Positions 11,521 through 16,692 of a stretch of DNA of 21,740 nucleotides are shown here, one piece after another. The notes beneath the pieces were generated by a model that was not told where the DNA came from, made no database searches, and saw nothing but the letters and a program-made list of their open reading frames with translations. The translations under genes and the position numbers were made by a program. Source of the DNA: a virus; IMG/VR virus record IMGVR_UViG_3300034355_000641, positions 1 through 21,740 of that record, one strand, 5' to 3'. Positions within the stretch are counted from its first letter, which is position 1. Each line of letters starts with the position of its first letter.

Positions 11521-12713
11521 CAACAGCAAAGAAGAACCTCGACTCGGTGGCTGTTCACGCAGCCTGGCTAAAAAACGGTCGCAACTTGCGACAGACGGCA
11601 CTCGCTCTCGGAGTGAACTCCGGCACGATCCGTCTGCACGTCGACAAAATCGAAGGAGCGGAGCAACGTCCGCACACCCTCGAGGAGCAGCTTCGCGCGG
11701 CTCGAGCTCACATCAAAGAGCTTGAGGGCAAGATGCTGAACGACGCAGTCGTCCGCGATGAGATCTTCAAGCTCTCGCGCGCATCCGTCGACCCTCCGTC
11801 CTGGCTTACGAAACCTTCGAGGCCGGTGTCGGAGTTTGCAGGCGTCCCGACGCTGTTCGCGAGCGACTGGCACTTCGGCGAGGTCGTTCGTCCCGCAGAG
11901 ATCGGAGGCGTGAACGAGTACAACGTCGAGATCGCAAAGGATAGAGCGCGCACCTTCATCACGGTCGCGATCGAGCTCCTGCGGAAGCACATCCAGGGCG
12001 GCAAGTATCCCGGCTGTGTCTTTATCCTGGGCGGCGATATGCTCTCGGGCGACATTCACGAGGAGCTATCCGAAACGAACGAAATGCCGACGATGCCAGC
12101 TCTGATCGAGCTCGTCGGTGTCCTGTCCTGGTGCGTTCGCACCCTAGCGGATGAGTTTGGCGCCGTCTTCATTCCCTGCGTCACCGGCAACCACGGCCGC
12201 ACTAGTCGCAAGCCTCGAGCGAAGCGACGCAACCACACGAACTTCGACTGGCTTCTGTACCAGATGCTCGCCAAGGTCTTCGAGGCCGATCGCCGCGTGA
12301 CGTTCCTGATCCCGGAAGGGCCGGACGCCTACTACAAGATCTTCGGGACGCGATACCTCCTCACGCACGGCGACCAGTTCCGAGGCGGCGATGGCATGAT
12401 CGGCGCGCTCGGTCCGATCGCTCGAGGCGACAAAAAGAAACGCGCGCGCAACGTCCAGACCGACAAGAGCTTCGACGTCATGCTCCTCGGGCATTGGCAC
12501 CAGTACATTCACATGAATCGCTTCATCGTGAACGGGACGCTGAAGGGCTACGACGAGTACGCCGACGCGAACAACTTCGACGTCGAACCGGCGCAGCAGG
12601 CGCTCTGGATCACGCACCCGCAACACGGCATCACGTTCCGAATGCCGGTCTATGTGCAACGCGGCACGACCACATCGAAGACCGAATGGATCACCATCCC
12701 GAGGGCGGCATGA
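11517..12713 (+). CDS. HTH-domain calcineurin-like metallophosphoesterase
   Basis: A 398-residue protein. Residues about 10-45 ('AAWLKNGRNLRQTALALGVNSGTIRLHVDKI') form a helix-turn-helix, 55-90 is a charged helix, and 110-350 is a metallophosphoesterase core with all signature elements: D117-W-H119, GGD174, TGN225H226, H284-G-D, and GH326WH328. Such folds act as nucleases or phosphatases with two metal ions. The fusion to a DNA-binding HTH suggests a nucleic acid substrate, but this is inference. It lies inside the lysis/late block, overlapping its neighbours by four bases on both sides, so it is expressed late. Related HTH-phosphoesterase proteins occur in phages without an assigned role. 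Confidence 0.85.
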   Translation: MTTAKKNLDSVAVHAAWLKNGRNLRQTALALGVNSGTIRLHVDKIEGAEQRPHTLEEQLRAARAHIKELEGKMLNDAVVRDEIFKLSRASVDPPSWLTKPSRPVSEFAGVPTLFASDWHFGEVVRPAEIGGVNEYNVEIAKDRARTFITVAIELLRKHIQGGKYPGCVFILGGDMLSGDIHEELSETNEMPTMPALIELVGVLSWCVRTLADEFGAVFIPCVTGNHGRTSRKPRAKRRNHTNFDWLLYQMLAKVFEADRRVTFLIPEGPDAYYKIFGTRYLLTHGDQFRGGDGMIGALGPIARGDKKKRARNVQTDKSFDVMLLGHWHQYIHMNRFIVNGTLKGYDEYADANNFDVEPAQQALWITHPQHGITFRMPVYVQRGTTTSKTEWITIPRAA

Positions 12714-12925
12714 AGGACGCGATCAACCCGAGCCACTACCAGGGCGACATCGAGTGTATCGACGCGCTGCGCGCGGCTCTGACGCCGGAGGAGTTCCAGG
12801 GCTACGTCAAGGGCTCCGCGATGGCTTACCTCTGGCGCCTGGGAAAGAAGGACGCGCCGGAGCAGGAGGCCGGGAAGGCGATCTGGTACATCACCTGGCT
12901 CACCGGCCGAGACCCGCGCGAATGA
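12710..12925 (+). CDS. DUF3310-family small phage protein
   Basis: A 71-residue protein with the conserved DUF3310 pattern 'INPSHYQ', 'IECID', 'FQGYVKGSAMAYLWRLGKKD' and 'KAIWYITWL'. The ATG at 12710 overlaps the previous TGA (ATGA); an in-frame ATG at 12686 would add eight residues but lacks the coupling. Members are widespread in phages, usually of unknown role; I recall T7 gp1.7, reported as a nucleotide kinase, as a relative but cannot confirm that here. It overlaps the spanin start by four bases. Confidence 0.85.
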   Translation: MKDAINPSHYQGDIECIDALRAALTPEEFQGYVKGSAMAYLWRLGKKDAPEQEAGKAIWYITWLTGRDPRE

Positions 12926-15034: not shown

Positions 15035-15157
15035 TTATGATGACAGGCGGCTCTCGATCAACTTCTGCTCATCCTGGGGCGGCGGAGGCGCGTCCCGGAG
15101 CTCCTGATAGGCGGCTCGAGCGAGCAGCTCGACAAGCTCTCGAAGGGCGGGATTCAT
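15035..15157 (-). CDS. Small ORF upstream of the integrase (40 aa)
   Basis: A 40-residue ORF starting at ATG 15157 and ending at TAA 15037-15035, nine bases before the integrase ATG. GGAG lies seven bases upstream of the start (15165-15168 on the plus strand). The protein starts 'MNPALRELVELLARAAYQEL', an amphipathic helix, followed by four prolines and an acidic helix. The good ribosome site and spacing make it a real gene candidate. Small proteins beside serine integrases are sometimes directionality factors, but those are usually larger, so the role is unknown; coupling to integrase translation is an alternative. Confidence 0.6.
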   Translation of the reverse strand: MNPALRELVELLARAAYQELRDAPPPPQDEQKLIESRLSS

Positions 15158-15197
15158 TTCAGTACTCCGTCGTCCATGCCTTGAATTTCTCGCGTAC

Positions 15198-15413
15198 CCG
15201 ATGCCGACCTTGCCGTGTCATTCCAAGCCCTTCCCAAATGTCCATGCCTAGCCGCGCCGTGCACCACCGAGCCCTGCCATGCCTAGCCAAGCCGAGCCAT
15301 GCCGATCCCGGCCAAAATTTCCTTGCCGCGCCTAGCCGTGCCTGGCCGCGCCGTTCCCAGCCGAGCCCTGCCGAGCCCCGCCGTGCCAAGCCTTAACATC
15401 CAAACCCTGCCAC
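15198..15413 (-). repeat. Two-level pentanucleotide array (NNGGC units, 79-nt superunit)
   Basis: On the plus strand the stretch reads as GCCNN pentamers; on the transcribed minus strand, NNGGC. Block A (15241-15315) and block B (15320-15394) each hold exactly 15 pentamers, each followed by a 4-nt break (AATT 15316-15319, AACA 15395-15398), giving a 79-nt unit. A third block starts at 15399 and is cut after three pentamers by the upstream gene's stop. Another break (AATG) lies at 15237-15240, before which pentamers continue degenerately to about 15198. Of 33 well-phased pentamers, 25 have GCC, 5 TCC, 2 ACC and 1 GCA at the fixed positions. The first pentamer after each break is always TCC. 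The dinucleotides differ between blocks, so this is not simple recent duplication. Other than a TTG-initiated frame it holds no convincing gene. Confidence 0.9.
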
Positions 15414-15414
15414 G

Positions 15415-16032
15415 TTATGCGGCGATTTTTAGTTCCCGTTTAATTTCATCGAAACGCTCAACCGTAAATCTGCCGTATCGAGGCCGATAATCACCGAGGC
15501 CGATGAACGCACCAGCGTCCGACAGCCAACGATGCAGCGCAGCGGCGTCAGCGACGACCTCATTTGATGCCGACACTTCAAACGTAATGCGCCAATCGTG
15601 AAAAATCGGGCGGGTTCGCATGACGCGCGCTTGACCTACACGAACGCCGACCGTCAAGCGAAAGAACGGATCGGCACACATCTCATCGACGGTCTTTCCG
15701 GCACCGGCAAAAGACAGCGCGCCGTCTGTTTCAACAAACACGCCAGAAAGCGCTTGCTTGCCTTCTTTGCTCCGCGTCGCGCCTTTTGCGATCACCGCCT
15801 CGAGAATGCGGCTCGGAATCATCGGCGCGCCATTTGCGTCTACATAAAGCCCGCCTTTCCACTCGATGTCCGCCATCGCGGCAAGATCGGCGTCTGTCTT
15901 TTTTCGTTTAGACGAGACCGCCTTCATCGCTTTTGAGAATGGATTGAGGGGGTCCGCTAACTGCCCGTTGTGCATAACGAGCGGAGACAGGCCGGAAATC
16001 GTTGCGCTGAAGAACCGATAACCTATCGACAT
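15415..16032 (-). CDS. Phage protein with RAMP/Cas7-like features, next to the array
   Basis: A 205-residue protein; ATG at 16032 with GGAG seven bases upstream. I recognise it as a recurrent uncharacterised phage protein. The N-terminal strand 'FFSATISGLSPLVMHNGQ' (7-24) leads into a basic helix (33-45). 'GAPMIPSRILEAVIAKGATR' (68-87) recalls the 'IPGSSLKG' motif of Cas7/Csm3-type RAMPs, and the C-terminus has a Gly-rich loop 'GLGDYRPRYGRF' (178-189) like RAMP G-loops. These would suggest an RRM-type RNA-binding fold. That is eye-level motif similarity, not a proven homology. The stop codon lies two bases from the pentanucleotide array, which therefore forms the 3' UTR of this gene's message. 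The upstream HNH ORF overlaps it by 125 bases. Confidence 0.7.
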   Translation of the reverse strand: MSIGYRFFSATISGLSPLVMHNGQLADPLNPFSKAMKAVSSKRKKTDADLAAMADIEWKGGLYVDANGAPMIPSRILEAVIAKGATRSKEGKQALSGVFVETDGALSFAGAGKTVDEMCADPFFRLTVGVRVGQARVMRTRPIFHDWRITFEVSASNEVVADAAALHRWLSDAGAFIGLGDYRPRYGRFTVERFDEIKRELKIAA

Positions 16033-16393
16033 TTGATAACTCCATACCCACCAGGGGCGTCAGATTTTTGCGCGCTGTTTCAATGCGGCCGGGTCGCGCG
16101 ACTTTTTCCCGGACGCAATCAATCATCGGAGCCGGTCGCTCCTGTCGAAGTCGCGATGTAATCGCCTCGTGGCATTGGCGGCACAGCACAACGACGTCGG
16201 CAAGAGATTCGGAACCGAATGTCTCGTAGTGCCGGTGATGCAACTCAAGCCCGTAGCCAGTAGCGGCGGACGCAGGGCAGCAGCGACATTCAAAATTTGC
16301 CGCGGCGAGCGCTTCATCGCGCAAGCGCGACCAATGGCTCGGCGCTGGATGCTCGGATGAGGGGCGCTTTGTTAATCGACCCGCAATCTTCAC
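15908..16393 (-). CDS. HNH endonuclease
   Basis: A 161-residue protein from a GTG start (16393-16391) overlapping the previous stop in GTGA. The HNH/zinc module spans about residues 34-80: 'FECRCC' (Cys36, Cys38/39), 'LELHHRHYETFG' (His52, His53), then 'VVLCRQCHEAI' (Cys71, Cys74, His75). Family members cut DNA with a beta-beta-alpha metal finger. The last 41 residues overlap the start of the RAMP-like gene in another frame and have unremarkable composition, so either the true protein functions without them or a frameshift extended the ORF. In-operon partners could be the recombination genes upstream or the array/RAMP-like pair downstream. Confidence 0.8.
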   Translation of the reverse strand: MKIAGRLTKRPSSEHPAPSHWSRLRDEALAAANFECRCCPASAATGYGLELHHRHYETFGSESLADVVVLCRQCHEAITSRLRQERPAPMIDCVREKVARPGRIETARKNLTPLVGMELSNVDRLSVLQRNDFRPVSARYAQRAVSGPPQSILKSDEGGLV

Positions 16394-16626
16394 GCGGCCT
16401 TCTCCACGATCTCGACATAAGCGTCGAGCTTGTCTTCAGCGATCCCGAGCTGCAAAGAAAGAAGCTTTTTCTGTAGCTCACCGACGGCCTTCTGCAACTC
16501 GTCGCGCTCCTCAACGAGTAGCTTCACTCGAGAGGCGAGCGCCTGCGAGAGATCGCTTGCGTCGGGGATCGCGGAGACGTGACCGACAATCTCAAGATCA
16601 GACATCAAAGAATAAAATCCAGACAT
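16390..16626 (-). CDS. Hypothetical coiled-coil protein
   Basis: With ATG at 16626, 78 residues; an in-frame ATG at 16683 (97 residues) is possible but gives a Pro-rich start, and neither has a strong ribosome site. The centre, about residues 28-60 ('ASRVKLLVEERDELQKAVGELQKKLLSLQ'), is a clear heptad coiled coil, so it probably self-associates. No family recognised. It overlaps the HNH start by four bases (GTGA), in the early operon. Confidence 0.62.
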   Translation of the reverse strand: MSGFYSLMSDLEIVGHVSAIPDASDLSQALASRVKLLVEERDELQKAVGELQKKLLSLQLGIAEDKLDAYVEIVEKAA

Positions 16627-16692
16627 AACTGTTCCGGCTTGCACGACGGGGCCGGGCTCCGTTGGGGGGTGTGACGCGCGCATCGTCGATGA

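What the first reader, a model, noticed from the sequence alone, without database searches (positions are those of the whole stretch)
15035..16393. Possible new phage system: HNH nuclease, RAMP-like protein, array and small ORF in one transcript
Four elements lie head-to-tail on the minus strand: an HNH nuclease overlapping the RAMP-like gene, the array starting two bases after that gene's stop, and a 40-aa ORF. A nuclease, an RNA-binding-type protein and a repetitive RNA are the parts list of an RNA-guided or RNA-scaffolded system, for example inter-phage competition or control of the adjacent integrase. The set is compact and next to the integrase, a common site for accessory cargo, but the linkage could also be ordinary early-operon crowding.
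Basis: inference. Interest (0 to 1): 0.75.

Follow-up and report, generated by a model that had tools for sequence, protein, structure and literature searches.

The report
Phage VIPR cassette with HNH nuclease
This phage carries a small RNA-guided weapon of the newly described VIPR kind (a CRISPR-like RNA-binding protein plus guide RNAs that spell their target two letters at a time), here paired with an HNH DNA-cutting enzyme and inserted as one block next to the phage's integrase; the kind was published in 2026, but the stable HNH partner suggests a version that cuts DNA.

Summary
The block 15158-16389 (- strand) holds an HNH gene, an overlapping RAMP gene and a GGYNN pentanucleotide array. 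It belongs to the published VIPR family (bioRxiv 2026, PMC13142463): the protein matches the solved SUSP1 Vipr (E 1.7e-29) and models as a Csm3/Cas7-type RAMP. In 87 loci from unrelated phages and prophages, 70 have such an array within 1.5 kb downstream (1.3 expected). GG is fixed, the third base leans to a pyrimidine, the last two carry almost no information.

The HNH is not a bystander. In 66 of 146 vipr loci an HNH gene sits directly 5' of vipr, nowhere else within 2.5 kb, 59 times in one overlap phase, and the label clusters on the Vipr tree. Two other HNH-VIPRs target each other's putative capsid gene under the published 1-nt-skip rule, skipped base at the wobble position; other skips and shuffles give nothing comparable. 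In eight close relatives the site is empty, so HNH, vipr and array travel as a block.

The 40-aa ORF belongs to the backbone: relatives without VIPR keep it. No target was found for this window's own two guides. HNH cutting of the target is inferred from its closest structural matches (Cas5-HNH Cascade), not shown.

The parts
15908..16393 (-). HNH endonuclease gene (161 aa, GTG start), candidate VIPR accessory protein (vap). CxxC...HH...CxxCH core at residues 36-75; C-terminal third predicted disordered
   Evidence: HNH families; invariant W21 R25 C36 C39 H52 H53 Y56 C71 C74 H75; AF2: HNH core pLDDT above 90, tail below 60; top Foldseek matches Cas5-HNH and type I-E HNH Cascade, E 0.011-0.07; substitutions biased to codon position 3
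15415..16032 (-). vipr gene, RAMP (Cas7-like) protein, 205 aa, phrog_4652
   Evidence: PDB 36pp SUSP1 Vipr, E 1.7e-29; AF2 pLDDT 89.3; Foldseek Csm3/Cas7, best E 8e-7; invariant MHNGQLADP and C-terminal glycine-rich loop
15908..16032 (-). 125-nt overlap of the HNH 3' end with the vipr 5' end
   Evidence: 59 of 66 HNH-vipr pairs in the same phase, overlap mostly 100-170 nt
15393..15411 (-). leader of the array: GGCAGGGTTTGGATGTTAA, partial units and junction motif
15318..15392 (-). vrRNA 1 guide tract, 15 GGNNN units (NN: TT AC GG TC AG TC TG AC GC CA AC TA GC AA, then GGAAA)
15239..15313 (-). vrRNA 2 guide tract, 14 of 15 units (NN: CG TC AT TC TT TA AT AG TC GG AC GC TA AT, then GGACA)
15195..15234 (-). 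third, degenerate block (6 GG units), possibly a decayed guide or the tail of vrRNA 2
15158..16389 (-). whole cassette HNH-vipr-array, absent from eight related contigs that join the flanking genes directly
15035..15157 (-). 40-aa ORF: NOT part of the system; backbone gene kept in relatives without VIPR
   Evidence: (L211, L212, L216, L221, L227, L229)
16390..16629 (-). upstream flanking backbone gene (79 aa); its stop codon overlaps the HNH start codon here and the 40-aa ORF start codon in most empty-site relatives

Best explanation
This is a VIPR system of an HNH-bearing lineage, carried by a phage as accessory cargo beside its serine integrase. The array is transcribed and cut into guide RNAs (vrRNAs). 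Copies of the Vipr protein bind one GGY each and line up along the RNA, leaving the two variable bases of every repeat free to pair with DNA as NNxNNxNN with one target base skipped. The complex locates matching double-stranded DNA in competing phages or prophages. The HNH protein, made from an overlapping gene, most likely joins the complex and cuts or nicks the target, as HNH domains do in Cas5-HNH and Cas8-HNH Cascade. Shown here: family membership, fold, array anatomy, HNH linkage, block movement, and the 1-nt-skip code in two other HNH-VIPRs. Shown elsewhere for other VIPRs (PMC13142463): vrRNA production, RNP formation, skip-rule binding, phage repression. Inferred: RNA processing in this phage, HNH recruitment and cutting, and the identity of its targets.
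For: phmmer to SUSP1 Vipr in the PDB (36pp), E 1.7e-29; AF2 model pLDDT 89 matching Csm3/Cas7. Downstream GGYNN arrays in 70 of 87 vipr loci against 1.3 expected; information 1.66, 1.53, 0.48, 0.05, 0.01 bits over the five unit positions. HNH directly 5' of vipr in 66 of 146 loci, never elsewhere within 2.5 kb, 59 in one phase; HNH label needs 7 changes on the Vipr tree against 39 for shuffled labels (quick tree). Empty sites in eight relatives with both flanking genes preserved. Skip-rule test over 290 arrays in 5.4 Mb: only skip 1 gives strong matches, L149 array to L121 putative capsid gene 38/48 (E 2.9e-8) and L121 array to L149 putative capsid gene 31/38 (E 2.1e-6), while the best shuffled order gives 0.002; the skipped base falls on the codon wobble position in both. 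HNH model closest to Cas5-HNH and type I-E HNH Cascade. HNH substitutions against L008 biased to codon position 3 (25, 27, 60 at positions 1, 2, 3). Mechanism of VIPR in general: PMC13142463.
Against: No target for this window's own guides: 16-base seeds in IMG/VR gave only chance extensions, a 20-base seed found nothing in 84,980 genomes, and guide 1 with up to 3 mismatches found nothing in 385 genomes of the class of a Brevundimonas MAG (the host of this phage is unknown). The HNH has Asp (D66) where classic HNH enzymes have Asn; Foldseek E for its CRISPR matches is only 0.011-0.07; no experiment links HNH to Vipr. More than half of the sampled vipr loci lack an HNH. The array shows no structured 3' tail (fold z -1.4), unlike SUSP1 vrRNAs.
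Confidence: 0.8

Rival explanations
1. It is a VIPR system that works by binding and transcriptional repression alone, and the HNH is an auxiliary DNA-binding protein or a degenerate nuclease, not the cutter.
For: VIPR repression without a nuclease is demonstrated for other types (PMC13142463); most sampled HNH members have Asp or Ala instead of the classic Asn before LC; the C-terminal third is predicted disordered.
Against: All metal and zinc ligand positions and the HH pair are invariant in 28 divergent members; selection on the HNH frame; closest folds are CRISPR HNH nucleases.
Confidence: 0.25
2. The HNH is a selfish homing-type endonuclease that hitch-hikes with or spreads the cassette, unrelated to how Vipr works.
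For: Free-standing HNH genes are common in phages as homing endonucleases (established knowledge); the cassette is present or absent between close relatives.
Against: 66 of 66 HNH genes lie at the same side of vipr, 59 in one overlap phase, and the association follows the Vipr tree across many phyla. A homing enzyme would not be expected to stay with one gene at that depth.
Confidence: 0.12
3. The array guides Vipr to the phage's own DNA to control the adjacent integrase or lysogeny.
For: Position beside the integrase; some published vrRNAs hit lysogeny regulators, though of other phages (PMC13142463).
Against: No significant 1-nt-skip match of either guide in the window itself or in related contigs that keep the same integrase; relatives with a 94-99% identical integrase lack the cassette.
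Confidence: 0.03
4. The repeats are a chance or low-complexity GC-rich stretch without function.
For: High G+C region; one 76-aa ORF also spans it.
Against: Shuffles never reach the run length and the same array type recurs in dozens of unrelated loci; the spanning ORF has no credible family match.
Confidence: 0.01

Closest known systems
VIPR, Viral Interference Programmable Repeat (Escherichia phage SUSP1 type II and other types; bioRxiv 2026.04.26.720920, PMC13142463; PDB 36pp)
   Same: Homologous RAMP protein, GGY/NN arrays, minimal locus with one accessory gene next to vipr, phage-borne, 1-nt-skip targeting of competing phages seen in two HNH relatives
   Different: Accessory gene here is an HNH overlapping the 5' end of vipr, not a DNA-binding vap; vrRNA blocks are joined by a short GGAxxTTTx(x) linker without a structured tail. 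The paper says types III-V carry enzymes and that only III and V carry predicted nucleases, but its main text never names HNH and the supplement could not be read, so the type number cannot be given
Cas5-HNH / Cas8-HNH Cascade (type I-E and I-F HNH variants; PDB 8zlu, 8yha, 8yb6, 9shx)
   Same: RAMP-based RNA-guided complex with an HNH nuclease; top structural matches of the HNH model
   Different: HNH fused to Cas5 or Cas8, CRISPR array with contiguous spacers, many Cas subunits; here a separate HNH protein and one RAMP
Type III Csm3 / Cas7 backbone subunits
   Same: Fold of the Vipr model
   Different: Only 10-15% sequence identity, no Cas10, no CRISPR array, no other subunits
IscB (NCBIfam NF040563)
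   Same: HNH segment resembles the window HNH weakly (23 bits, cut-off 175)
   Different: No RuvC, no omega-RNA; not a member

Membership tests
VIPR | Vipr-type RAMP protein (about 20 kDa, RRM core, G-loop) | tested here: met
   wV8 homologue (a near copy of SUSP1 Vipr) lies in the same tree
VIPR | vrRNA tracts of 9-16 tandem units with conserved GGY and hypervariable NN | tested here: met
   two tracts of 15 and 14 units; positions 4-5 carry almost no information over the family; closest relative L008 (79% protein identity) has six entirely different tracts
VIPR | Invariable 3' tail with conserved secondary structure (as in SUSP1 clade) | tested here: not met
   no unusual structure (z -1.4); blocks are separated only by GGAAATTTT / GGACATTTG. 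The paper says array architecture varies by type, so this concerns the SUSP1-like type, not the family
VIPR | Target recognition by NN letters with a 1-nt skip | tested here: inconclusive
   Met for the HNH relatives L121 and L149; no target found for the window's own guides
VIPR | vrRNA transcription and co-purification with Vipr | not testable with these tools
   needs RNA sequencing and pull-down
VIPR type with nuclease vap (III or V of PMC13142463) | nuclease accessory gene linked to vipr | tested here: met
   for HNH linkage; the type number itself could not be tested because the supplement is out of reach
CRISPR-Cas class 1 | CRISPR array with contiguous spacers and several cas genes | tested here: not met
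   repeat unit of 5 nt, no Rfam match, no cas genes among the neighbouring genes scanned
Rfam RNA families (including CRISPR direct repeats, hammerhead) | covariance-model match in or near the array | tested here: not met

The most novel reading that the evidence does not exclude
HNH-VIPR is a distinct, widespread branch in which a non-contiguously coded, two-letter RNA guide directs a separate HNH enzyme to cut double-stranded DNA: a roughly 40-kDa, PAM-free programmable nuclease used by phages against each other, including reciprocal targeting of capsid genes.
Probability: 0.4. Interest if true: 0.85.

Novelty: new member of a known kind. Interest (0 to 1): 0.6.

Why it matters
VIPR is a newly described RNA-guided principle thought to be older than CRISPR. 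Only DNA binding and repression have been shown so far, in the main text of the one paper found. This locus and its 65 counterparts show a nuclease gene genetically tied to vipr over large evolutionary distances and carried by phages as well as bacteria, which makes the question whether VIPR can cut DNA directly testable with two small proteins and one RNA. The empty site shows how such weapons are gained and lost between sister phages, and the reciprocal capsid-gene targeting gives an independent check of the 1-nt-skip code outside the experimentally studied clades.

Tried and rejected
Targets of the window's guides: four 16-base gapped seeds in IMG/VR gave only extensions at chance level (0.23, 0.24 and 0.29 match for the first three; no long extension for the fourth); a 20-base seed found nothing in 84,980 genomes; up to 3 mismatches found nothing in 385 genomes; mismatched search of related phage contigs gave best E 0.2, in a conserved stretch of other vipr genes and not in wobble phase, so rejected. 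L008 guides match recT-like and tail genes of the related contig L228 at 20/26, wobble phase, but E 0.22 each: suggestive only. Overall counts of weak matches (E below 1) for skip 1 (69 of 290) barely exceed shuffled order (54), so only the reciprocal pair is claimed. Promoters: none found in the region. RNA fold of the array: not unusual. Searches failed on input or file errors. Hypothesis that the 40-aa ORF is part of the system: rejected by empty-site relatives. Rfam: no match. IscB: weak HNH-only similarity.

Full report
What is there. On the minus strand an HNH gene (16393-15908), a RAMP-like gene (16032-15415), a pentanucleotide array and a 40-aa ORF (15157-15035) follow one another, then a serine integrase. 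The HNH and RAMP genes overlap by 125 nt. The array is statistically strong: GG pairs at distance 5 number 33 against 10.7 +/- 4.5 in first-order shuffles, and the longest run is 15 GGNNN units against 8 at most. It has two guide-like tracts of 15 and 14 units, joined by the short linker GGAAATTTT, and a third degenerate block. The window is an IMG/VR fragment of 21,740 bases with no larger genome behind it.

Which family. tblastn of the RAMP protein hit 129 phage records, all under 60% identity. In five unrelated phages (Gordonia MakoManhole and Trine, Mycobacterium LittleE, Pseudomonas Medea1, Escherichia wV8) a GGNNN array lies in the noncoding DNA around the gene. A literature search then found the published system: VIPR, with vrRNAs of alternating GGY/NN, non-contiguous DNA recognition by a 1-nt-skip rule, and action against competing phages (PMC13142463). 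The window protein matches the solved SUSP1 Vipr protein, PDB 36pp, at E 1.7e-29, and its AF2 model (pLDDT 89.3) matches Csm3/Cas7 subunits (best E 8e-7).

Array statistics over the family. Of 87 vipr loci from viral and phage collections, 70 carry an array of 7 or more units within 1.5 kb downstream; 1.3 are expected from shuffles, and most of the rest carry one upstream. Over 307 distinct arrays and 4339 units, information content is 1.66, 1.53, 0.48, 0.05 and 0.01 bits for positions 1 to 5: GG fixed, third base mostly a pyrimidine, last two free. These loci were chosen by protein similarity, not by array, so the association is independent; the composition of positions 1-2 is partly by construction, since arrays were called on GG.

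HNH linkage. In 146 vipr loci (87 viral or phage, 59 from genome contigs), 66 have an HNH ORF ending close to or inside the 5' end of vipr, and no other HNH of this family lies within 2.5 kb. The overlap is in the same phase in 59 of 66 and is mostly 100-170 nt. On a tree of 123 Vipr proteins (quick method; the careful search did not finish) the HNH label needs 7 changes against 39 for shuffled labels, and the window groups with L008 and other HNH loci. The HNH core is invariant at W21, R25, C36, C39, H52, H53, Y56, C71, C74 and H75 in 28 members. Substitutions between the window and L008 in the HNH-only part fall 25, 27, 60 on codon positions 1, 2, 3, so the gene is under selection. Its predicted structure is confident only for the HNH core; the best structural matches are Cas5-HNH Cascade (8zlu, E 0.011) and type I-E HNH Cascade (8yha, 8yb6), RAMP-based complexes that carry an HNH nuclease. 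This E-value is weak, and the HNH has Asp66 where the classic motif has Asn, so catalysis is likely but not established. Neighbours of HNH loci in bacterial genomes are a mix of phage integrases and defence-type genes.

A mobile block. Relatives of this phage were found through the tail protein (27 loci). None of these stretches has vipr or this HNH, and twelve of the underlying records searched whole have no vipr either. In eight of them (L211, L212, L215, L216, L221, L226, L227, L229) the 79-aa gene upstream of the HNH and the 40-aa ORF (diverged in L215 and L226) are joined directly, in most by a shared ATGA. In the window the same two ends flank the 1.2-kb cassette, whose first codon (HNH GTG) overlaps the upstream stop codon. 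So HNH, vipr and array are gained or lost together, while the 40-aa ORF and the integrase belong to the backbone. In L230 about 590 other bases lie at the same site, so the site accepts different cargo.

Does the code hold in HNH-VIPRs? For 290 arrays the NN letters were matched against 5.4 Mb of both-strand sequence from all loci, arrays masked and pattern-selected loci left out, with skips of 0 to 3 (first run). Only skip 1 gave outstanding matches, and they are reciprocal: the L149 array matches the L121 contig at 38 of 48 letters (E 2.9e-8), and the L121 array matches the L149 contig at 31 of 38 (E 2.1e-6). The best of 290 shuffled orders reaches 0.002. Both targets lie in the gene just upstream of the HNH-vipr cassette (L121 2687-3691, L149 165-1169), which I read as the major capsid gene from its length and position; this name is an inference. 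In both cases the skipped base is the third codon position, as reported for other VIPRs. Each contig carries an HNH-VIPR, so two related phages appear to aim at each other.

Targets of this window. None found. Four 16-base seeds from the two guides in IMG/VR gave only chance-level extensions, a 20-base seed gave nothing in GTDB genomes, and up to three mismatches gave nothing in 385 genomes of one class. Guides of the sister system L008 match recT-like and tail genes of L228 in wobble phase but at E 0.22 each, which is not enough. Absence may reflect missing freshwater phages, so it does not count strongly against the function.

How it most likely works. Vipr coats the vrRNA with one subunit per repeat; NN letters pair with DNA, skipping one base; the bound complex blocks the target, and the HNH, produced from the overlapping gene, probably cuts or nicks it. 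Binding and repression follow from published work on homologues; HNH action is inference by analogy with Cas5-HNH and Cas8-HNH Cascade. I put VIPR membership at about 0.95 and HNH cutting of the target at about 0.6.

Novelty. VIPR is known, and its paper says that some types carry nucleases, without naming HNH in the main text; its supplement could not be read. The locus is therefore a new member of a known kind. What this work adds is the conserved HNH-vipr overlap, the empty site in sister phages, phage carriage of the nuclease-bearing form, and a reciprocal targeting pair that supports the code outside the tested clades.

Noticed in passing
L010 5098 and 5205, L106 3898, L144 4898, L181 5850, L189 6174, L191 5954; also L001 about 2975 and 3100, L003 about 5195 and 5340, L004 about 4575, 4700 and 4805: In several HNH-less VIPR loci (Actinobacteria phages, Bacteroidota and others) a tRNA-like acceptor plus T-arm minihelix (TTCGANT loop) lies in the array region, directly after the repeat blocks in L010. 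Stem sequences differ completely yet pair perfectly; a strict search found 7 on the sense strand and 0 on the antisense strand. This looks like a tRNA-mimicking vrRNA tail, perhaps for RNase P/Z processing; the main text of the VIPR paper does not mention it.
   Followed up: partly
L121 3124-3195 and 4589-4683; L149 1097-1153 and 2064-2183: Two HNH-VIPRs of related phages target each other's putative capsid gene under the 1-nt-skip rule, skipped base at the wobble position.
   Followed up: yes
L230 about 12318-12910: At the site where the window carries the VIPR cassette, this relative carries about 590 bp of other small ORFs: a cargo hotspot beside the integrase.
   Followed up: no
L005 3756-3813 and 5149-5206 (phage wV8): Annotated direct repeats 'DR_4' flank the vipr gene pair; the second follows directly on a GGTNN array, so they look like the conserved part of type II vrRNAs.
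   Followed up: no
loci of alignment A4 (genome neighbours of HNH-VIPR): Six of 86 neighbour proteins match the IetA defence ATPase models; a possible further partner or a defence island.
   Followed up: no
L003 3977-5139 (Mycobacterium phage LittleE): vipr and its partner gene sit in reverse orientation between tail genes, as an independent insertion.
   Followed up: no
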